The notes beneath the pieces were generated by a model that worked only from the letters and a program-made list of their open reading frames with translations, did not search any database and was not told the DNA's origin. This document shows, in pieces, positions 1-9,891 of a stretch of DNA of 10,681 nucleotides. Origin of the DNA: Brachyspira catarrhinii (GTDB lineage Bacteria > Spirochaetota > Brachyspiria > Brachyspirales > Brachyspiraceae). Made by a program: the position numbers and the translations under genes. Numbering within the stretch: the stretch's first letter is position 1; each line of letters starts with the position of its first letter. Where the stretch lies: contig NZ_SJDU01000044.1 in assembly GCF_005518285.1 (NCBI RefSeq), forward strand, positions 1-10,681, written 5' to 3'.

Positions 1-1789
1 TGAAATTATTAAATATTTTTATTATGTCTTGGTTTTGAAAATCAATTTTTGAGTTTAAAGAATTTTGAATATCGAGCATCGCGTTTATATTTTCTTTTAT
101 GTAAATCGCTATATTGCTTTGTTCTTCCACTATATTAAATATGTCATTATTATATTTTTCCAAAGTTTCAAAAGATTCTAAATTGGAATCTTCAAAATTA
201 AAACTATTTTCTATCGTTTTCAAATAATCGTCCATTTCTTTAGCCAACTCGTTAGCCGAATTCTCTATCATTTTGCAATGCTCTTCCACATAAAAAGAAG
301 AGTTTTCTACCATAACCAAACCAGAAAATATATTTATAAGAATTTTTTCCATAAGTTCCGTGCTTTGATTAATTTCTGTCGCTAAAACGCCTATTTCTTT
401 CGCCACAACCGAAAAACTTCTTCCATGAATTCCCGCTTTTGTCGATTGAATACCCGCGTTTATCGAAAGCAAATTCGTTTTATTCGTCATATTTTTTATA
501 TATTCTATCGTTTCGTATATTTCGCCCGTTATGGCGCTTATATCTTTAAATTGGTTAGAATATTCGAGCATATTGTCTATGAATTTTTTGGAAGTTTTTT
601 GCAAATCGTTTTTTATATTTTTTAAATCTTCGTTCAATTCTTTTATTTCGTTATTTGAAAAATCGGATTCTTTTATTCTTTTAATTATTCCGTTTAACAC
701 TTTACAGTTATCTTGCAATCTGTTTTTATATGTTTCAAAAACGCTAAATACGGCGCTTGTGAATCTTATTCCGTCTTTTATTATTTGATTTTTATTTTCT
801 TTAGTTTCCGCGAGTTTATCTTTCGAGGCTAAAATATTTTCGACTTTTGAATTCATTATATCCAAAGCGTCTTTATTTTCTTTATCTATTTCGAATACGA
901 ACATTGAAGAATCCATAAAATTTTTGTCGACAGTATTTAATTTGTCGGAGATTCCATGAATAGTGGTAAGTATATTTAAGTTATTTTTTAATCTGCTTAC
1001 CAAAACATTGTCTTTATTTATCACATTCAAAGCGTTCACGGTAAAACTTGAAAAAGTCGCTATAAACCTAATCATATAAGATAAAGTTATCGCAAGTCCC
1101 GTTCTGTCGAAGTTGATTCCCGCATTAGTTTTGAAAAGCGATATATCGGTAAATATCAAATATAATCCTATTAAACTGAAAATATTAAACACTACATTTA
1201 TTCCAACATTATGTCTCGAAATAATATCGAGTATTACGGGAATTAAAGTTGCGGCGAATACGAATAATATTATATACATTTTAAATAGATAAAATAAACC
1301 GTTTGGAGACACTCTATAATAAATTCTATCCGCTCTATGAAATATTTGATTTACATTAACTCCAAAAAAAGCGTCAAAATTTATCACGCTTACTATAAGA
1401 AGGGCGATAATCAAAAGTCCCGTTATAATCAAAATAAAATTATTTGCATTATTAACCGTTTTCATACTACTTAAAAAATTTCTATTATTAAGAGGCATAA
1501 TCAAAACCGTAAATAAAACGAGTATATTATTGAAAATATATAAATTAGTCGTTATGTCGGGAAATATATTATAGAGTTCAAAAAATGTAATAACCACCAA
1601 TATAATATTATATAAAGAAAGGAGCTCCAAAGTAACGGCGATTATAAAATATGTCGAGCTTTTCGTTCGCCTCGACAATAATATAAATATAACGGCAAAT
1701 ATAGTCATTACCGACAAGTCTATTACGGGAACTAATAATTCGATGATATTAATATTATATCCTAATATAAAAGTAGTTAATAAATCCAT
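1..1789 (-). CDS. Seven-helix membrane receptor with MCP-like signalling domain (C-terminus cut by window edge)
   Basis: An open frame of 596 codons starts at ATG 1789 and continues without a stop to the left edge, so the C-terminus is missing. The first ~255 residues hold about seven hydrophobic segments (roughly 16-39, 46-70, 82-100, 117-137, 165-189, 196-218 and 228-253). I see no large extracytoplasmic ligand domain and no clear HAMP domain. The rest is coiled coil with a hairpin tip at about 431-471 like that of methyl-accepting chemotaxis proteins: TNLLSINAG (438-446), then HGRSF (455-459), VVAKE and VLA. The family's near-invariant Glu is Gln448 here, and Lys451 stands near the usual Arg. 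A chemoreceptor-like role signalling to CheA/CheW is inferred from this tip. The gene lies 8 bases after the paralogous receptor gene upstream and is almost surely co-transcribed with it. If the lengths match (644 residues upstream), about 50 residues are missing. The ligand is unknown. Confidence 0.85.
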   Translation of the reverse strand, partial: MDLLTTFILGYNINIIELLVPVIDLSVMTIFAVIFILLSRRTKSSTYFIIAVTLELLSLYNIILVVITFFELYNIFPDITTNLYIFNNILVLFTVLIMPLNNRNFLSSMKTVNNANNFILIITGLLIIALLIVSVINFDAFFGVNVNQIFHRADRIYYRVSPNGLFYLFKMYIILFVFAATLIPVILDIISRHNVGINVVFNIFSLIGLYLIFTDISLFKTNAGINFDRTGLAITLSYMIRFIATFSSFTVNALNVINKDNVLVSRLKNNLNILTTIHGISDKLNTVDKNFMDSSMFVFEIDKENKDALDIMNSKVENILASKDKLAETKENKNQIIKDGIRFTSAVFSVFETYKNRLQDNCKVLNGIIKRIKESDFSNNEIKELNEDLKNIKNDLQKTSKKFIDNMLEYSNQFKDISAITGEIYETIEYIKNMTNKTNLLSINAGIQSTKAGIHGRSFSVVAKEIGVLATEINQSTELMEKILINIFSGLVMVENSSFYVEEHCKMIENSANELAKEMDDYLKTIENSFNFEDSNLESFETLEKYNNDIFNIVEEQSNIAIYIKENINAMLDIQNSLNSKIDFQNQDIIKIFNNF

Positions 1790-1800
1790 AATAACCCTTA
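1790..1800 (-). promoter_or_regulatory. Ribosome-binding site overlapping the upstream stop codon
   Basis: On the minus strand the stop of the 644-residue receptor gene (TAA, 1800-1798) overlaps an AAGGG purine stretch (1799-1795). Five bases lie between this stretch and the ATG at 1789. The arrangement implies translational coupling of the two receptor genes and supports the ATG at 1789 as the true start. Coupling is inferred from spacing. Confidence 0.55.
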
Positions 1801-3732
1801 TGTCGTTTTGGAATGTTCTCTAATTATACTATCCAAATTATCGGAATATTCTAAAATTTGTTCTTTCTCATTATTAAGTTTTCCGCTCACCGATTCCAAA
1901 TCTTCCGAAGTAGCCAAAAGTTTGTTCATATCTCTCATAAGATTTTTTACTTCCGTATTATGTTCGGAGGCTTTCTCGGATATGTCTATTATATAATCGT
2001 TAAATTCTTCTATTCTCAATCTTATATTCATAAAATCGTTTTCTTCGCTCGTTATTATTTTATTTATATCCGATACGGAATCGAACATTTTATTCGTATT
2101 TTTTGCCATATTAACATTAAAATCGTTTTGTCTATCCATACTTCTATTGAATTGATAGATTTTATCGTAATAAGCCGATATTTCTTGCGCCAATTCGGAT
2201 GCGTTATTATTTATATTAACTGTTGCAGAATTGAATTTTTTGAAAATATCTTCTATTTGATAAAGTAATTTCTGCATTCTTTCCGATACGGTCAAAGATT
2301 CCGTTACCAATTCCAATACGGAATTTGAAACCGTTTCAAAATTGCCCATCCAATCTCCAGATTTTGAAGCTTGAATTCCAGAATTTATCGAAAGAGTTTT
2401 CGCTCTGTCGGATATATTCGACATAAAAACTACGATTTTATTTATTTGCATATTCAAATGGCTAAGTTCCGAAGATTTATTGAGTTCGTTTCCTATATTA
2501 AATTTTTCCTTATCGACATATTTTTGAAAAGAATCGAATTTATCGACTATATTCGAACTTTCTTCTTGCAAATTGTATATTTCTTCGATAGATTTTTGTA
2601 AATTTGAATTTAAATTCGCAAGCATCGTTTGTTGAGATACGGAAGCCTCTTTTAATTTCGGGTAAGTTTCTATAAGTTCGTTAATTTTTTCGATATTCGA
2701 GTTTGCATCGTTTACCTGAAAGTTTTCTATCGTGATAAATTCGTTTATGGAATCTATAGTTTTCGCTATATCCGTTTTCAAAGCGCTAACCGAAGAATAG
2801 GCGTTTGAAACATCTTCCGTTAATTCTTTTACCGCTTTTTGAAAATCGTCTTTAAATTCGAGCATTTTTTTTGAAGTGTTTGACGCCGTATTTATTATAA
2901 CCGTATCCTGCGCTCTAATCTCTTCAAAATTATAACTCTGTTTATTTCTTCTGCGGAAAACGGACGAAATAAATTGATTGACCGAAGAATGTATAATCGC
3001 GATATTATAAATTATATAAGCCAAAGTGATTCTTGAAAATGGAACGTTTCTCAATATTAAAAAATCTCCTCTTTCTTGATACACCGAAATTCCGTTAAAA
3101 TCGTCAAAGAAAAATATCGCTATTATGGAAGTTAAAATTAAATATTGAACATTTTTCGCGTAATTTTTATTAACCACCACTTCGTAAATAAAAGCGCTTA
3201 TTACCAAAAGCATATATGCCGATACGACAAAATCTCTAAATACATATAAAGGTCCTATTTTTCCTCTAATTTTTATGCTGTTTCTCATAGTTTCGTTTAG
3301 AGTGTCGACCGCTTCCGTTCTTGAAATGAAAGAATCCGAATAGATAATTCCTATAAATATAATTGTAGCCACCAAAAATATCGCCAAATTATAAAGAAAT
3401 TCCAAAGCCCAATGATAATTTTTATTCAATTCCAAATTATTTTTCGCGTATATTATCCACGGGAAAATCGTTAAAGATAAGGCGATTTGCTCCGCTCTGT
3501 ATAAATAAAATCCGATTTTGTTGTCATAACTTGAAATAGATATTACTATATTTATAAATTCCAAAGACGAAAAAACGAATGCCAAAATTCCTATAGATAA
3601 AGTTATTAATTGATTTTCTTCATATAATTTGAAATAAATATAACCGTAAAGTATTATTCCCACCAAACCCGTAAAAGTTCCTATAGTGGGAATTCCGATT
3701 TCAAAAAATATATGAAAGAAATTTCTATCCAT
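1798..3732 (-). CDS. Seven-helix membrane receptor with degenerate MCP-like signalling domain
   Basis: This complete 644-residue protein has the same layout as the gene that follows it. It has about seven membrane helices (roughly 13-36, 42-66, 74-95, 110-131, 164-187, 196-211 and 230-250), a basic stretch RRRNK after the last helix, then about 380 residues of coiled coil. The layout resembles the seven-helix sensor modules found on some histidine kinases, but no kinase or cyclase domain follows. The hairpin-like centre (about 436-480) keeps only traces of the chemoreceptor tip: TLSINSGIQ at 446-454, then KSGD. The GRxFAVVA segment is replaced by GNFETVSN (463-470). The usual Glu is Gln454. 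Interaction with CheA/CheW is therefore doubtful; partnering with the co-transcribed paralogue is a reasonable guess. The start at ATG 3732 has a short GGA five bases upstream. The MATE gene lies 86 bases upstream on the same strand and may share its transcript. Confidence 0.85.
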   Translation of the reverse strand: MDRNFFHIFFEIGIPTIGTFTGLVGIILYGYIYFKLYEENQLITLSIGILAFVFSSLEFINIVISISSYDNKIGFYLYRAEQIALSLTIFPWIIYAKNNLELNKNYHWALEFLYNLAIFLVATIIFIGIIYSDSFISRTEAVDTLNETMRNSIKIRGKIGPLYVFRDFVVSAYMLLVISAFIYEVVVNKNYAKNVQYLILTSIIAIFFFDDFNGISVYQERGDFLILRNVPFSRITLAYIIYNIAIIHSSVNQFISSVFRRRNKQSYNFEEIRAQDTVIINTASNTSKKMLEFKDDFQKAVKELTEDVSNAYSSVSALKTDIAKTIDSINEFITIENFQVNDANSNIEKINELIETYPKLKEASVSQQTMLANLNSNLQKSIEEIYNLQEESSNIVDKFDSFQKYVDKEKFNIGNELNKSSELSHLNMQINKIVVFMSNISDRAKTLSINSGIQASKSGDWMGNFETVSNSVLELVTESLTVSERMQKLLYQIEDIFKKFNSATVNINNNASELAQEISAYYDKIYQFNRSMDRQNDFNVNMAKNTNKMFDSVSDINKIITSEENDFMNIRLRIEEFNDYIIDISEKASEHNTEVKNLMRDMNKLLATSEDLESVSGKLNNEKEQILEYSDNLDSIIREHSKTT

Positions 3733-3818: not shown

Positions 3819-5210
3819 TTAATCGGTTAATTTTCTTACCCAACGCTCTTCTTTAAGCATTATAATCGCTATGGTTATTTTTACGAAGTCGGTTAATTTC
3901 GCTATCCCAAACATCGCAACGGGACCAACGGAAGTAAATTTTGCCAAAATAAGCGCAACTGGAGCGAATAATAATAACGATACGGGAACATCTACCGCGA
4001 AACCAAATAAAGTGTCGCCTCCCGCCCTCGAAACTGCAAATTGCGAATTAATATAAGTCCAAACTGGCATATAGCATGAAATTAATATCACCAAATTTCT
4101 TGTAATCGTTTGAGCGTCCGCCGTGAGTTTTGAAAATATGAGCGGAATTAAAACTATTGACGACATTTCTATCAATCCGACTATAGAACCCGCTATTATA
4201 GAACCGTTCATTATCCATCTTGCCTTATTTTTAGCGTCTTCGAGTTCGCCTCTTCCTAAAGTTCCGCCGACTACAACCATAGTGGCGACATGAACTCCTT
4301 GAAAAACCAAATAAAATATATTCGCAATAGTAAATCCCGAAGCCATTCCCGCTACAGTTTCCGCTCCTCCTCTGCTGTTATAAAGCGCTGTCATAAACAT
4401 TTCGCTTAATCCCCAACTTATTTCGCTTAAAAATATTAGGCTCGATTTATTAAGCATAGCCCAAAAAACGCCTATTTTAACTTTTAATATTTCTCTCGTT
4501 CTGACATAAAATTTTTCTTTATGCAATTTGATATATATTATAAAAAGCGACATTTCCAATATTCGCGCTATTAAAGTCGCCGTTGCCGCTCCCGTTTCTT
4601 CGAGTCTTGGCGCTCCCAAATTACCGTATATTAAAATCCAATTCCCAAATGTATTGCAGGATGTCGCTATAACGGAAATTACCAAAGGAATATGCGGCTT
4701 TCCTATTTCTCTGTATGAGCTTCCTATAGCACCCGAAATTGAAATTGGAATAAATGTGAAAGCGATTATTTTCATGTATTTCGAGCTTGATTCCAATATT
4801 TCATTTTGAGAGTAATTTCCTTGAGTAAGCAGTCGCATAAAAATTTCTGGATTTACGAGCATCAAAATCATATATACGATTGAAATAAAAAGAGGAAGAA
4901 TAACTTTAAACCTAAAAGCCTGTTGCATTCCTTCTTGATTATTCGCTCCGTTATTTTGAGCCATGTAGATTCCGCCCGCTCCGTAAAAAGTGTATAATAT
5001 AACCAAATACATGAAATTTAATTGATTTGCCACATTAACCGCCGCCATTTTTATATCGCCGAGTCCCGCAACCATAAAATTATCTATAAGCGAAACCATA
5101 CCCATTATTAATTGTTGAGCCATAACGGGAACGGCTATAGATATGCATAATTTGTAGAAATCCCAATTTCCGAATATTTTATTTTTTGAATAATTTAAAC
5201 TGTCGTCCAT
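3819..5210 (-). CDS. MATE-family multidrug/cation antiporter
   Basis: This polytopic inner-membrane protein is predicted to export toxic cations or drugs in exchange for sodium or protons. The N-terminal part has the family pattern of a proline-containing first helix followed by QQL, MVSLIDNFMVAGLG and AAVNVANQ. A second half of similar hydrophobic pattern follows, giving about twelve helices and the usual MATE length. I place the start at ATG 5210 (463 residues). The frame is open to a TTG at 5228, which would add six residues. That TTG has no ribosome-binding sequence and lies at about the predicted transcription start, so the shorter form is preferred. The ATG also lacks a good Shine-Dalgarno site. 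The gene is divergent from the ankyrin gene and is the first of a possible minus-strand unit with the two receptor genes. The substrate cannot be read from sequence. Confidence 0.88.
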   Translation of the reverse strand: MDDSLNYSKNKIFGNWDFYKLCISIAVPVMAQQLIMGMVSLIDNFMVAGLGDIKMAAVNVANQLNFMYLVILYTFYGAGGIYMAQNNGANNQEGMQQAFRFKVILPLFISIVYMILMLVNPEIFMRLLTQGNYSQNEILESSSKYMKIIAFTFIPISISGAIGSSYREIGKPHIPLVISVIATSCNTFGNWILIYGNLGAPRLEETGAATATLIARILEMSLFIIYIKLHKEKFYVRTREILKVKIGVFWAMLNKSSLIFLSEISWGLSEMFMTALYNSRGGAETVAGMASGFTIANIFYLVFQGVHVATMVVVGGTLGRGELEDAKNKARWIMNGSIIAGSIVGLIEMSSIVLIPLIFSKLTADAQTITRNLVILISCYMPVWTYINSQFAVSRAGGDTLFGFAVDVPVSLLLFAPVALILAKFTSVGPVAMFGIAKLTDFVKITIAIIMLKEERWVRKLTD

Positions 5211-5232
5211 AATAATATTTTTAACCAAATAT

Positions 5233-5416: not shown

Positions 5417-7054
5417 ATGAAAAAAGCAATAAAAATTATTTCTACTATAATTATGGTGTTTGCGACTATATTAATAGCGCAAGAAAATAATAATGCAGAT
5501 ATTTTTGCATTAATAAGAGCGAATAATGTTCAAGAGATAAGAAAATTAATCTCTCAAGATGGTTTTAATGTTAATATACAGGATGTAAATGGAAATACTC
5601 CTTTAATACATGCCGTAATAAGAAAAAATCAGCAAATGGTTCAAGCGTTAATAGAAGCCAAAGCGAATGTTAATACGAAAAATAACGAAGGAAACACGGC
5701 TTTAACTTATTCTTTAACGAATAGGAATAATAGAATATTGAATATGATTATAGATGCGGGAGCCGATGTTGAAACAAAAGATACAAACGGAAACACTCCT
5801 TTAATACATGCGGCTATTAATAAAAACAGACAATTAACGGAAACTTTGATAAAAAATAAGGCAAATGTTAACGCTAAAAATAAAGAAGGACTTACAGCTT
5901 TAAATTACGCTTTAAATAATCGTAATAATGAAATAGCGAAACTACTTATAGGAGCTGGAGCTAATATAAATATTAAAGACGATAAAGGCAATACTATTTT
6001 AATGAATCTCGCCTATAATAATAATTACGATTTGGCAAGAGCTATAATAAATACAAAAGCTGATGTTAATGTTAAAAATAAAGAGGGTTTTACAGCTTTA
6101 ACTTTCGCCGCTTATAAAGGAAGTTATAATGTTGCAAAACTACTTATAGATTCTGGAGCTAATATAAATATTAAGGATATAAATGGAAATACTCCTTTAA
6201 TGTATGCTTCCTACAATAATTATACAAATGTTCTAAAATTGCTTATTGATTCGGGAGCTAATATTAACGAAAAAAAATCGGACGGTTTTACGGCTTTAAT
6301 GTTTGCGGCTTATAAAGGAAGTTATGCAACCGCGGATATGCTTATACAAAATGGGGCAAATGTTAGAATGAAAGATATAAACGGAAACGACTCTTTTATG
6401 TATGCCGCTTATAATAATAGAGTAAATATGCTTCCTTTATTTACTAATTCTATGAGTATCGATTCGACCAATAATGAAGGAAGAACGCCTTTAATTTTAG
6501 CTTCTATTAGCGGACATAGAGAAATGGTTCAAGCTCTTATTAATTTGAACGCGAATATTAACGCTAAAGATAAAGACGGAAACACCGCTTTAATGTATTC
6601 CACTTTTAATAATAAATCCGATTTAATTAATATATTTATAAATTCAAATGCCGATTTGAATATTCAAAATAATATAGGAGTAACGGCGTTGATTTTTGCG
6701 TCTATGAACGGATACGACAGAATAGTGAAAACTTTAATAGACGCTAAAGCAAATATAGATATAAAAGACTATTATGGGAACACCGCTTTAATGTATGCGG
6801 CGGGCAGAGGAAACGATAGAGTCATCAGCATGTTAAATAAAAACGGTTCTAATATAGACACCCAAAATAGAGTTGGATATACGGCTTTATTTTTTGCGGC
6901 GGTTAATGGTTATGAACAAGCCGTTCAAATGCTTATAGATTTAAAAGCGGATATAGATATAAAAGATTCTTACGGAAAAACGGCTTTAATATACGCTCAA
7001 GAAAGAGGTTATGATAGTATAGTCGAATTACTTACAAAAGCTGCGGAAGGATAA
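5417..7054 (+). CDS. Secreted ankyrin-repeat protein
   Basis: This 545-residue protein begins with a Sec signal peptide: MKKAIK, then a hydrophobic stretch to about residue 20, then AQENN. There is no lipobox cysteine, so the mature protein should be periplasmic or released. Apart from a short N-terminal helix pair (about 26-55), the mature chain is a run of ankyrin repeats from residue 56 to the end, usually 33 residues each, with the signatures GxTALxxA and LLIxxGANxNxK. It should fold as a curved solenoid used for protein-protein binding; the partner is unknown. The repeat at 320-351 is one residue short and poorly conserved, and may be a break in the solenoid. The last repeat (517-545) is a C-terminal cap. 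Translation ends in three consecutive in-frame stops (TAA TGA TAA, 7052-7060). I see no clear terminator before truA, which converges on it. Exported ankyrin proteins are common in Brachyspira; a role with host or envelope proteins is only inferred. Confidence 0.92.
   Translation: MKKAIKIISTIIMVFATILIAQENNNADIFALIRANNVQEIRKLISQDGFNVNIQDVNGNTPLIHAVIRKNQQMVQALIEAKANVNTKNNEGNTALTYSLTNRNNRILNMIIDAGADVETKDTNGNTPLIHAAINKNRQLTETLIKNKANVNAKNKEGLTALNYALNNRNNEIAKLLIGAGANINIKDDKGNTILMNLAYNNNYDLARAIINTKADVNVKNKEGFTALTFAAYKGSYNVAKLLIDSGANINIKDINGNTPLMYASYNNYTNVLKLLIDSGANINEKKSDGFTALMFAAYKGSYATADMLIQNGANVRMKDINGNDSFMYAAYNNRVNMLPLFTNSMSIDSTNNEGRTPLILASISGHREMVQALINLNANINAKDKDGNTALMYSTFNNKSDLINIFINSNADLNIQNNIGVTALIFASMNGYDRIVKTLIDAKANIDIKDYYGNTALMYAAGRGNDRVISMLNKNGSNIDTQNRVGYTALFFAAVNGYEQAVQMLIDLKADIDIKDSYGKTALIYAQERGYDSIVELLTKAAEG
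5582..7051 (+). repeat. Tandem ankyrin repeats with a 198-base two-repeat super-period
   Basis: Fifteen consecutive units start at residues 56, 89, 122, 155, 188, 221, 254, 287, 320, 352, 385, 418, 451, 484 and 517. Units beginning with Asp (DxxG) alternate without exception with units beginning with Asn or Lys (NxxG/KxxG). At DNA level, 5939-5979 aligns with 6137-6177 with few differences. GCTTATAAAGGAAGTTAT near 6110 recurs near 6308. Both pairs are offset by exactly 198 bases. This points to growth by duplication of a two-repeat block. Confidence 0.88.
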
Positions 7055-7946: not shown

Positions 7947-8885
7947 TTATTGTAAATCCGCTGGAATCACGATTCCCAATTTTTGAGCCGAATTAGTATT
8001 TATTTTTAAAGATAAATTTTGCAAATATTCTATCGGCATATCTGCGGGTTTCGATTCTCCTTTCAATATTTTTACCGCTTGTTTTGAAGTCAACTTTCCA
8101 AGCTCGTAATAATTGATTCCGTAAGTAGCCAAACCTCCTCTTGGAAGCATTCCTTCTTCTCCGCATATAATCGGTATTTTCGCGGGTTCGGTTATCGATG
8201 CAACGGTAGGCATTCCAGCCGAAACCATATTGTCGGTTGGAACATATATAACGTCAACTTTTCCGATTAAATTTTGAACGACTTGCTGAATTTCGTTAGG
8301 GTTCGTTATCGTGGCGTCTCTTGTGATTAATCCTATTTCTTCCGCTTTCTTTCTCGCAATATCGACTTGATATTTTGAATTCTGTTCGCTCGAATTATAC
8401 AAAAATGCCACTCTTCTCGCGTTTGGAATTAATTTTTTTAACAAATCCATCTGCTCGCTAACGGGAGTCAAATCGGAAGTTCCCGTAACATTTCCGCCTG
8501 GCGCGTTATTGTCCGCAACCAATTTTGAATCCGCTGGGTCTGTAACTGCCGTAATAAGTATCGGTATATCTTTTGTAAGATTTGCAATCGCTTGAGCGGC
8601 TGGAGTCGCAATAGCCAAGATTAAATCGCTTCTGTCGTTAATAAATTTTTGAGAGATGGTTATACAATTTGCCTGTTCTCCTTGAGCGTTTTGATAATCT
8701 ATAATGATGTTTTTTCCGTCTTCGAATCCTTCTTCTTTTAATCCGTCCACAAAACCTCTGTTCGCATCGTCCAATGCTGGATGTTCGACTAATTGCAATA
8801 TTCCAATTTTATAAGCCGAAGATTCGCTTTTTGAACAAGAAAATGCAACCAAAATTATAGATAATATTATTAGTAGTTTTTTCAT
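7947..8885 (-). CDS. ABC transporter substrate-binding lipoprotein (TrpX-like family), no adjacent transporter genes
   Basis: This 312-residue protein has a lipoprotein signal: MKKLL, a hydrophobic core and the lipobox AFSC with Cys17 as the lipidation site. It should be anchored to a membrane and present a two-lobed binding domain. The body matches the ABC substrate-binding family that includes TrpX: TPAAQA (94-99), TAVTDP (112-117), PGGNVTGTSD (129-138), YNSSEQNS (163-170), PTDN (216-219) and GINYYELG (256-263). Known relatives bind aromatic amino acids; the ligand here is not determinable. Relatives usually precede permease and ATPase genes, but a terminator follows this one at once and neither neighbour is a transporter component. 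The start at ATG 8885 is firm: AAAGGAG lies eight bases upstream. Confidence 0.93.
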   Translation of the reverse strand: MKKLLIILSIILVAFSCSKSESSAYKIGILQLVEHPALDDANRGFVDGLKEEGFEDGKNIIIDYQNAQGEQANCITISQKFINDRSDLILAIATPAAQAIANLTKDIPILITAVTDPADSKLVADNNAPGGNVTGTSDLTPVSEQMDLLKKLIPNARRVAFLYNSSEQNSKYQVDIARKKAEEIGLITRDATITNPNEIQQVVQNLIGKVDVIYVPTDNMVSAGMPTVASITEPAKIPIICGEEGMLPRGGLATYGINYYELGKLTSKQAVKILKGESKPADMPIEYLQNLSLKINTNSAQKLGIVIPADLQ

Positions 8886-9009: not shown

Positions 9010-9891
9010 ATGATTGATTTGAAAAATATTGTAAACGAAAAATATATTGGAAAAGAAGAAAACCCGATAAATCAAAACGAAATTTATAATTTTGCCTCTT
9101 CCGTTAATATAAAAAATAATAAAAACGAAGCCTTGCTTATAATAGACGCTCAAAGAGATTTTATTGATATGGAAAAAGGAGCTTTAGCCGTCAAAGGAGC
9201 GACTGAAGATATAAAAAGAATAATAAAATTTATTTACGACAATATTGAAAATCTATCTTCGATTTATACTACAATCGACACTCATAGCTACGATTCGATT
9301 TTTCATCCTTTTTTATGGAAAACTCCAAACGGCGAATATGTCAAACCTTTTACCGAAATCACTTTGGAAAAAATAGAAAATAAAGAAGTTATTCCCGTTT
9401 ATAAAGATATTCAAACGGATTATGTCAAAAAATTAAAAGAGCAAGGAAGTCAAAATTTAATTATTTGGACTTATCATTGCATCTACGGAACTGACGGATG
9501 GCTTATCGAAAAACAGCTTTCAAATATTCTCGCGTTTTTTGAAGCCTCTAAAAAAACTTCCATAAACAAAATAATAAAAGGAACGGATAAATTTACCGAA
9601 ATGTATGGAGCGATAAAACCAGAAGTAATGACGGGAAAAAATAATTATAATAACGATTGGGTAAAAGAAATTAAAAATTACGAAAAAATATTTGTTTGCG
9701 GAGAGGCGAAAGATTATTGCGTTTACGAAACAATTAAACAATTTTGCGAAATTTATAAATCGGAAAAAAATATAACGGAAAAAATTTATTTTATGAATAA
9801 TTGCAGCAGTTCGATTGGAGATGAAAATATTTGTAATAAGAAATATGAAGAGCTTGCAAATAATTATGGAATAAAATTGATAACCGTGTGA
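9010..9891 (+). CDS. Nicotinamidase/isochorismatase-like cysteine hydrolase
   Basis: This 293-residue soluble protein has no signal peptide and carries the superfamily's catalytic set. Asp46 lies in LLIIDAQRDF, Lys190 in IIKGTDKF and Cys237 in CGEAKDYCV. A probable metal-binding group is Asp90-x-His92 with His99 (TTIDTH...FHP). This pattern is closest to nicotinamidases, which hydrolyse nicotinamide to nicotinic acid for NAD salvage. The protein is much longer than typical nicotinamidases (about 180-220 residues), with a ~40-residue polar N-terminal extension and extra sequence between the core motifs. Another amide substrate is therefore possible. The start is well supported by GAGGAG (8996-9001) eight bases before the ATG. 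It is divergent from the substrate-binding lipoprotein with overlapping promoters. Palindromic repeats follow its stop. Confidence 0.85.
   Translation: MIDLKNIVNEKYIGKEENPINQNEIYNFASSVNIKNNKNEALLIIDAQRDFIDMEKGALAVKGATEDIKRIIKFIYDNIENLSSIYTTIDTHSYDSIFHPFLWKTPNGEYVKPFTEITLEKIENKEVIPVYKDIQTDYVKKLKEQGSQNLIIWTYHCIYGTDGWLIEKQLSNILAFFEASKKTSINKIIKGTDKFTEMYGAIKPEVMTGKNNYNNDWVKEIKNYEKIFVCGEAKDYCVYETIKQFCEIYKSEKNITEKIYFMNNCSSSIGDENICNKKYEELANNYGIKLITV

What the first reader, a model, noticed from the sequence alone, without database searches (positions are those of the whole stretch)
1..3732. Tandem seven-helix receptors fused to MCP-like coiled coils
Two neighbouring, probably translationally coupled genes each join about seven membrane helices directly to a long MCP-like cytoplasmic coiled coil. 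Neither shows a periplasmic sensor domain or an obvious HAMP domain. Canonical chemoreceptors have two helices flanking a periplasmic domain; seven-helix sensor modules are better known on kinases and cyclases. The architecture and the paired arrangement suggest a receptor type that senses a membrane or lipophilic signal and may work as a heteromer. The paired function is inference.
Basis: partly seen in the sequence, partly recalled or inferred. Interest (0 to 1): 0.72.

Follow-up and report, generated by a model that had tools for sequence, protein, structure and literature searches.

The report
Paired seven-helix chemotaxis receptors in Brachyspira
Gut spirochaetes of the Brachyspira family carry a neighbouring pair of receptor-like genes that each join a seven-helix membrane sensor to a chemotaxis-type signalling rod, and the two copies look as if one kept more of the sensing part and the other more of the signalling part.

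Summary
Genes B (1798-3732) and A (2-1789, cut by the contig end) each encode seven membrane helices, predicted N-out/C-in, running into an MCP-like coiled coil without a detected HAMP. The pair is adjacent, order B-A, in 26 of 26 genomes of the genus and in 2 of 2 and 1 of 1 of two sister genera, usually followed by a CvpA-like gene. B and A are old duplicates. Their seven-helix part belongs to a modular Spirochaetota sensor family without a Pfam model of its own; 51 relatives carry MCP (14), kinase (14), HATPase_c_2 (12) or GGDEF (11) outputs. Its predicted fold is GPCR-like. Compared with unpaired seven-helix MCPs, the pair lacks conserved methylation-like motifs and has Q for the conserved tip glutamate (Tsr E385). 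In the main genus B keeps the 7TM signature while A keeps more of the signalling tip; the sister genera show this less. Best reading: a two-subunit chemoreceptor, B sensing, A coupling. The heteromer is inferred; the ligand is unknown.

The parts
1798..3732 (-). Gene B: 644 aa seven-helix MCP-like protein (first gene of the pair), proposed sensing subunit
   Evidence: ORF; 7 helices in AF2 model; MCPsignal 26.1 bits, below cut-off; orthologues in 26 of 26 genus genomes
2947..3720 (-). B seven-helix sensor region, residues 5-262
   Evidence: AF2 helices 5-36, 39-67, 72-99, 104-130, 161-187, 191-215, 234-262; profile A3 finds relatives outside the genus
3232..3267 (-). B signature in the helix 4-5 loop and start of helix 5 (RG..G..Y..RD, residues 156-167)
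   Evidence: R 51, G 48, G 51, Y 44, R 49, D 50 of 51 relatives outside the family; first R, first G and second R kept in 24 of 24 genus B proteins compared
2317..2409 (-). B hairpin-tip region, residues 442-472, with K445, Q454, K457 where Tsr has N376, E385, R388
   Evidence: these three columns invariant in 24 of 24 genus B proteins compared; correspondence from HMMER alignments, Tsr numbers recalled
1790..1797 (-). 8-base gap between B and A; AAGGG overlaps the B stop codon
   Evidence: sequence read on the minus strand
2..1789 (-). Gene A: seven-helix MCP-like protein, cut by the contig end (596 aa here), proposed signalling subunit
   Evidence: ORF open at contig end; MCPsignal 58.9 bits, over cut-off; orthologues in 26 of 26 genus genomes, one with a broken frame
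1013..1753 (-). A seven-helix region, residues 13-259
   Evidence: AF2 helices 13-42, 45-73, 77-96/98-103, 110-136, 165-190, 195-221, 229-259
389..484 (-). A hairpin-tip region, residues 436-467, with N439 kept and Q448, K451 where Tsr has E385, R388
   Evidence: these three columns invariant in 24 of 24 genus A proteins compared; alignment to Tsr
3819..5228 (-). MATE transporter, usual upstream neighbour of B on the same strand
   Evidence: PF01554 126.5 bits; TIGR00797 over cut-off; same place in 13 of 16 loci, elsewhere in 2, no sequence in 1

Best explanation
The two genes encode the subunits of one specialised chemotaxis-type receptor. Shown by computation: each chain is a seven-helix (GPCR-like by predicted fold) membrane module fused, with no HAMP detected, to an MCP-type antiparallel coiled coil; the two are old duplicates, related to seven-helix MCPs found as single genes in other spirochaetes; compared with those, both paired chains lack the methylation-like motifs and have Q for the conserved tip glutamate. 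Inferred: the outer-face motif of B's bundle binds or feels the stimulus, B and A associate through their coiled coils (as a heterodimer, or as homodimers mixed in one trimer), helix 7 of B passes the change down the rod, and A's better-preserved tip couples it to CheW/CheA of the che system that all genomes of the genus have. Without the usual methylation sites this receptor would not adapt through CheR/CheB in the usual way and may act as a slow bias or a tonic reporter of cell-surface or energy state. The CvpA-like protein of the same operon may be a membrane accessory.
For: Adjacency in order B-A in 26 of 26, 2 of 2 and 1 of 1 genomes of three genera. Homology over full length (hhalign E 4.6e-24) and over the 7TM part alone (E 9.3e-8). 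Trees: unpaired MCPs, B and A each on one side of a branch; with two genera 100/99, 100/99 and 100/100, with the third genus 100/100, 95/95 and 71/40. Complementary retention in the main genus: 27 family-conserved 7TM positions kept on average 0.505 in B and 0.196 in A; 39 conserved cytoplasmic positions kept 0.334 in B and 0.553 in A. The tip glutamate is E in 13 of 13 single 7TM-MCPs and lost in 27 of 27 A and 27 of 27 B; its Q is invariant in 24 of 24 genus A and B proteins although these diverge far faster than CheB (mean distances 0.53, 0.45 and 0.085), which points to selection, not decay. Methylation-like motif [EQ][EQ]x[ASGT][ASGT] conserved in 11 of 13 single 7TM-MCPs at each of two neighbouring sites, and at no position in a quarter or more of 25 B or 28 A proteins. 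In the second genus the operon lies tail to tail with cheA-cheW-cheR-cheD-cheB, 2 of 2 genomes. Partial correlation of A and B distances given CheB 0.84.
Against: No interaction, signalling or phenotype data. The sensor/coupler split is not general to the family: in the third genus both genes keep RG..G..Y..R, and in the second genus one of the two B genes (L098) has itself lost RG and Y of the motif. Both subunits lack E385, so even A may couple poorly to CheA. The K at R388 is not telling by itself: among six other MCPs of this genome with a readable tip that position is R in 2, H in 3 and Q in 1, while E is kept in 6 of 6. The operon in the second genus is convergent with the che genes, not co-transcribed. 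The 0.84 partial correlation may only reflect operon-wide rates. A's 7TM alignment to the family is weak, so some of its apparent losses could be misalignment. The methylation motif is a loose consensus that also rings once inside the 7TM part of the single MCPs.
Confidence: 0.4

Rival explanations
1. Two independent homodimeric seven-helix receptors for different stimuli, kept side by side because they share an operon and a duplication history.
For: Unpaired seven-helix MCPs exist in other spirochaetes, so one chain can suffice. In the third genus both genes keep most of the 7TM motif.
Against: 29 of 29 family genomes keep both, adjacent and in order, with gaps of 8-14 bases in the genus loci, 15 and 8 in the second genus and 32 in the third. 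Complementary losses in sensor and tip in the main genus are hard to explain for two self-sufficient receptors.
Confidence: 0.26
2. The MCP-type rod has been reused for something other than chemotaxis, for example an envelope or cytoskeletal scaffold or a sensor acting on the CvpA-like protein; the tip no longer binds CheA/CheW.
For: B scores below the MCPsignal cut-off; methylation-like motifs are gone; the tip glutamate is replaced in every A and B compared; a CvpA-like (PF02674) gene follows A directly in 14 of 15 genus loci where the end of A is visible and in the second and third genera.
Against: A keeps more than half of the conserved cytoplasmic positions and is over the MCPsignal cut-off; in the second genus the operon abuts the cheB end of the che cluster; related modules otherwise carry ordinary signalling outputs.
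Confidence: 0.19
3. B is a regulatory partner: a seven-helix pseudo-receptor that dampens or tunes A or the whole array instead of carrying the stimulus.
For: B has the more degenerate tip; degenerate paralogues acting as modulators are a common pattern (general knowledge).
Against: B, not A, keeps the family's 7TM signature in the main genus, which argues for a kept input role.
Confidence: 0.1
4. Ordinary MCPs with a periplasmic domain misread as seven-helix proteins, or a chance juxtaposition.
For: None found.
Against: Two separately predicted models with seven helices and a charge pattern to match; longest outside loop about 30 residues; pair conserved in 29 of 29 genomes.
Confidence: 0.02

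Closest known systems
MCP chemoreceptors such as Tsr and Tm1143 (PF00015)
   Same: Antiparallel coiled-coil hairpin; A over the MCPsignal cut-off; B's profile aligns with 2ch7 (a Thermotoga MCP) residues 20-297 (E 8.8e-13).
   Different: Seven helices instead of two plus a periplasmic domain; no HAMP found; no conserved methylation-like motif; Q at the E385 position.
Single seven-helix MCPs of other Spirochaetota (found here, e.g. L096, L097, L101, L110)
   Same: Same seven-helix module and direct fusion to an MCP rod; 14 of 51 relatives examined.
   Different: Single genes in the loci; tip glutamate kept in 13 of 13; methylation-like motifs in 11 of 13.
HisKA_7TM (PF16927) and 7TMR-DISM_7TM (PF07695) sensor modules
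   Same: Seven-helix input region on diverse outputs. hhalign with HisKA_7TM: unpaired modules 59% (E 9.1e-5, 162 columns), B set 21.8%, A set 1.6%; with 7TMR-DISM: 4.9%, 1.8% and 19.9%.
   Different: Window proteins do not reach either curated cut-off; best hint is the second-genus B gene with PF16927 at 19.0 bits against 28.6.
Sensory rhodopsin II with its transducer HtrII
   Same: A seven-helix receptor drives an MCP-type rod, and the complex forms trimers of dimers (passages of PMC8144572).
   Different: There receptor and transducer are separate chains, and the receptor holds retinal (recalled); here they are fused, and no lysine stands in the middle of helix 7 in B or A (sequence).
MASE-type multi-helix MCPs
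   Same: Membrane-embedded sensors without an extracytoplasmic domain on MCPs, common in the gut bacteria studied in PMC12415202 (passage).
   Different: No MASE or MHYT model among the matches; I know of no pairing.
GABA-B and other class C GPCR heterodimers (analogy only)
   Different: No sequence kinship seen; output is an MCP rod, not a G protein; Foldseek E-values are not significant (best 4.7e-3 and 2.4e-3).

Membership tests
MCP chemoreceptor (PF00015) | MCPsignal domain over the curated cut-off | tested here: inconclusive
   A 58.9 bits, met; B 26.1 bits, not met against 34.6; counterparts of B in the sister genera 37.5, 50.1, 49.8, met
MCP chemoreceptor (PF00015) | Conserved hairpin tip that contacts CheA/CheW and trimer partners | tested here: inconclusive
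   39 positions conserved in 13 single 7TM-MCPs: genus A keeps 0.55, genus B 0.33 on average; E385 equivalent lost in 27 of 27 A and 27 of 27 B. Binding itself not testable here
MCP chemoreceptor (PF00015) | Conserved methylation-site motif | tested here: not met
   no [EQ][EQ]x[ASGT][ASGT] site in 25% or more of 25 B or 28 A; control: two sites each in 11 of 13 single 7TM-MCPs. The motif is a loose consensus, recalled; methylation itself not testable. For this reason I call the pair MCP-like and do not file it as ordinary MCPs
MCP chemoreceptor (PF00015) | cheA/cheW system in the genome | tested here: met
   CheW domains in 7 of 7 genomes searched, the window's own included; CheB in 26 of 26 genus genomes
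HisKA_7TM (PF16927) | Score over the curated cut-off | tested here: not met
   0 of 25 B 7TM regions match at E <= 10; 2 of 25 A regions match, best E 7.8; second-genus B 19.0 of 28.6 bits
7TMR-DISM_7TM (PF07695) | Score over the curated cut-off | tested here: not met
   no match for A or B; 2 of 51 distant relatives match at E <= 0.001
GPCR | Seven-helix GPCR fold | tested here: inconclusive
GPCR | Sequence kinship and G-protein coupling | tested here: inconclusive
   no GPCR family among the Pfam matches; coupling not testable
Microbial (sensory) rhodopsin | Retinal-binding lysine in helix 7 | tested here: not met
   no lysine in the middle of helix 7 of B (234-262) or A (229-259; K259 at its very end) (sequence, helices)
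Heteromeric receptor | Physical B-A complex | not testable with these tools
   only genomic and evolutionary evidence

The most novel reading that the evidence does not exclude
Brachyspiraceae have a bacterial counterpart of an obligate class C GPCR heterodimer: two GPCR-like seven-helix chemoreceptor chains, in the main genus one specialised for sensing and one for kinase coupling, that form a methylation-independent receptor whose altered tips (Q in place of the conserved glutamate of the E385-R388 lock) keep it sorted from ordinary MCP trimers.
Probability: 0.2. Interest if true: 0.85.

Novelty: new variant of a known kind. Interest (0 to 1): 0.6.

Why it matters
Chemoreceptors are thought of as homodimers that mix in trimers and adapt by methylation. 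A strictly paired receptor with an apparent division of labour and without methylation-like sites would be an exception, and its tip change offers a direct test of which contacts sort receptors within arrays. The seven-helix module also links chemoreceptors, hybrid kinases, HATPase_c_2 proteins and cyclic-di-GMP enzymes of spirochaetes into one sensor family without a name of its own in the libraries searched; a ligand found for one output would inform the others. All 26 genomes of the genus examined carry the pair (gene A broken in one), the smallest (G019) included, so it probably serves a core function.

Tried and rejected
Ordinary two-helix MCP with periplasmic domain: spoken against by both predicted models and the charge pattern. 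HAMP hidden after helix 7: none at E <= 1. A third paralogue in the genus: the broad 7TM profile finds two matches in each of 26 genus genomes (at most 6 candidates scored per genome; for G015 and G012 the pieces of a broken or split gene). First thought that the third genus (G149) lacked the pair: wrong, the broader profile found it and the locus shows it. Dedicated che genes in the same operon: not so, convergent in the second genus. NCBIfam: no model over cut-off that names the 7TM part in the rows shown (one list was cut at 25 of 90). hhalign: forward-against-reversed controls gave at most 7.4%, except DISM against its own reverse at 69.8%, so a probability near 60% is a hint only; the B and A sets give HisKA_7TM only 21.8% and 1.6%. 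Heptad scan: 3.5-residue periodicity in many windows of both arms but weak right after helix 7 in B, in B 323-392 and 407-434 and in A 530-585, so the rod may not be uniform. Literature: 10 searches of an open-access library listed nothing that I could recognise as describing a paired 7TM chemoreceptor or this module; most subscription papers are not held, and the paper that I recall as the first on bacterial 7TM receptor families could not be opened. Genome papers of B. pilosicoli and B. hyodysenteriae (passages) count MCPs, and the first counts eleven genes with seven helices, without naming these two in the passages seen.

What was left out of counts: 51 relatives were scanned, namely 36 of the 38 proteins recovered (L270 and L286 dropped as weak or odd; L274 gave none) plus 15 of the loci (L112 and L113 gave no match there; L113's gene came back as L284). 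Near-copies were not thinned, weaker or short matches were not fetched, and that the four output classes do not overlap was not checked protein by protein. In some searches, 24 of 26 genus genomes were used (G012 and G015 left out: B split over contigs, A frame broken). The 13 single MCPs were picked by a tip pattern that demands the glutamate, so '13 of 13' keep it by construction; Pfam counts 14 MCP types.
Full report
What is in the window. The window is a whole contig (G000:C384) of a 2.69 Mb, 987-contig assembly that is 88.5% complete. Contigs of the same genus group match named Brachyspira records in length (for example G007:C107 and the B. innocens record), so I call the genus Brachyspira; this is an inference. 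Two minus-strand genes lie at the left end: B (1798-3732, 644 aa) and A (2-1789, 596 aa, cut by the contig end). Full-length relatives of A are 647-658 aa. The gap is 8 bases and the likely ribosome site AAGGG overlaps B's stop codon.

Signalling part. Pfam's MCPsignal scores 58.9 bits in A (over the 34.6 cut-off) and 26.1 in B (under it); no HAMP appears at E <= 1. Profiles of A and B align with solved MCPs, B with residues 20-297 of the 309-residue chain 2ch7 (E 8.8e-13). At the tip, A reads KTNLLSINAGIQSTKAG and B RAKTLSINSGIQASKSG. In 24 of 24 genus genomes compared, A has Q448 and K451, and B has K445, Q454 and K457. In Tsr numbers (recalled; alignment) these are E385 and R388 for A, and N376, E385 and R388 for B. 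Six other MCPs of the same genome with a readable tip keep E at E385 in 6 of 6 but have R, H or Q at R388 (2, 3 and 1), so the lost glutamate is the telling change. A figure legend of PMC8144572 names E385-R388' as an ionic lock between dimers (passage).

Pairing. Both genes occur in 26 of 26 genomes of the genus and are adjacent in the order B-A in all 26 by their coordinates; in G012 B is split over two contigs and in G015 A's frame is broken. In the same family, the second genus has the pair in 2 of 2 genomes and the third in 1 of 1. After A comes a CvpA-like gene (PF02674): directly in 14 of 15 genus loci where A's end is visible (in the most divergent, L081, it lies 4.5 kb away), and directly in the second and third genera. 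A and B are paralogues over their full length (hhalign E 4.6e-24) and over the 7TM part alone (E 9.3e-8). In the tree with all three genera, the unpaired MCPs lie on one side of a branch at 100/100, B with the third genus' first gene at 95/95, and A with its second gene at 71/40; the third genus' first gene is a long branch. With two genera only, A, B and the unpaired group are each supported at 100/99 or better. The duplication is thus at least as old as the split of the first two genera and probably older than all three; the root is not known.

The module elsewhere. A profile of B's 7TM part hits 40 of 392 Spirochaetota genomes, A's 32 (26 in the genus and 6 weak), and a broader profile 76 of 392, in 38 of 167 genera (at most 6 candidates scored per genome). 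Fifty-one relatives outside the family were scanned: MCPsignal in 14, HisKA, HATPase_c and response regulator in 14 each, HATPase_c_2 in 12, GGDEF in 11 and EAL in 10. A protein search with the 7TM part of one single MCP found 22 proteins, 20 on MCP and 2 on PAS-GGDEF-EAL; the four with an organism name are Spirochaetes or Spirochaetota. No Pfam or NCBIfam model names the module over its cut-off in the window's proteins. Kinship with HisKA_7TM is a hint: 59% probability in hhalign for the unpaired modules, but 21.8% for B and 1.6% for A, and 19.0 of 28.6 bits for a second-genus B gene.

What changed in the pair. Against the 51 relatives, 27 positions of the 7TM part are at least 80% conserved; genus B proteins keep 0.505 of them on average and genus A proteins 0.196. 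In the helix 4-5 motif RG..G..Y..RD, genus B keeps the first R, first G and second R in 24 of 24 and the D at 0.96; genus A keeps them at 0, 0, 0.08 and 0, though it keeps the second G in 24 of 24. In the cytoplasmic part, 39 positions conserved in 13 single MCPs are kept 0.553 in A and 0.334 in B. The sister genera do not show this split cleanly: both third-genus genes keep RG..G..Y..R, and one of the two second-genus B genes (L098) has lost RG and Y. A methylation-like motif is conserved at two neighbouring sites in 11 of 13 single MCPs but nowhere in A or B. A and B diverge five to six times as much as CheB between the same genomes, yet the tip columns named above do not vary.

Link to chemotaxis. 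All 26 genus genomes have CheB, and seven of seven genomes searched have CheW domains. In the second genus the operon lies tail to tail with cheA-cheW-cheR-cheD-cheB, in both genomes (Pfam for L179; the other by sequence; strands). Its CheB is 69-76% identical to the type of CheB found in each genus genome compared and 27-32% to three loci of a second type; 23 of 26 genus genomes have more than one CheB. A passage of PMC7666581 assigns F7 and F2 chemosensory classes to the Brachyspirae; I did not assign classes here.

Interpretation. The shown facts fit a receptor whose two chains divided the work in the main genus: B senses at the outer face of a seven-helix bundle, A couples to the kinase, and both left the ordinary MCP pool by losing methylation-like sites and the tip glutamate. 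The complex, the coupling and the stimulus are inferred. The main rivals are two separate receptors in one operon and a rod reused outside chemotaxis.

Novelty. Multi-helix MCP sensors are known (MASE-type, passage of PMC12415202; MHYT is described as a six-helix sensor in a passage of PMC8846402), and seven-helix sensor kinases too (BtsS, passages of PMC10653868). What I did not find described in ten searches of an open-access library is this module, its MCP form, or a conserved pair of such receptors. I file it as a new variant of a known kind.

Noticed in passing
L009 (G000:C92:2785-4760) and L179:1296-3068: A second receptor-like coiled-coil protein with a degenerate tip (IKVYSLNAI.ISSK). 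MCPsignal is below cut-off in L009 (28.9 bits) and absent at E <= 0.01 in the second-genus protein, which stands ahead of cheA there. Perhaps a standing partner of this che system.
   Followed up: partly
L070:5943-6413, L095:2465-2893, L247:5518-5985: CvpA-like (PF02674) gene follows A in three genera, with stop and start overlapping by one base in L070 (TAATG).
   Followed up: partly
L066, L065 (G015:C8, about 1094206-1096400): Gene A of one genus genome has a broken frame (one TAA and pieces in more than one frame) beside an open B; may be a real pseudogene or an assembly error.
   Followed up: no
window 5417-7054: Protein of 545 aa that looks like an ankyrin-repeat protein (several ankyrin-type NCBIfam matches, none over cut-off), with a signal-peptide-like start by eye.
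   Followed up: no
window 7947-8885: TrpX-like tryptophan substrate-binding protein (365 bits, just under the 390 cut-off); no transporter partner gene among the ORFs that I looked at in the window.
   Followed up: no
window 9010-9891: Nicotinamidase/isochorismatase-like protein (weak NCBIfam match, 33 of 174 bits).
   Followed up: no
L103, L104, L106 and relatives: The same seven-helix module on hybrid histidine kinases, PAS-HATPase_c_2 proteins with a weak RsbW match, and PAS-GGDEF-EAL enzymes in Spirochaetota; deserves a family model of its own.
   Followed up: partly
L078 and L084 (B. pilosicoli): The MATE gene that normally precedes B lies instead downstream of the operon on the opposite strand.
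   Followed up: no
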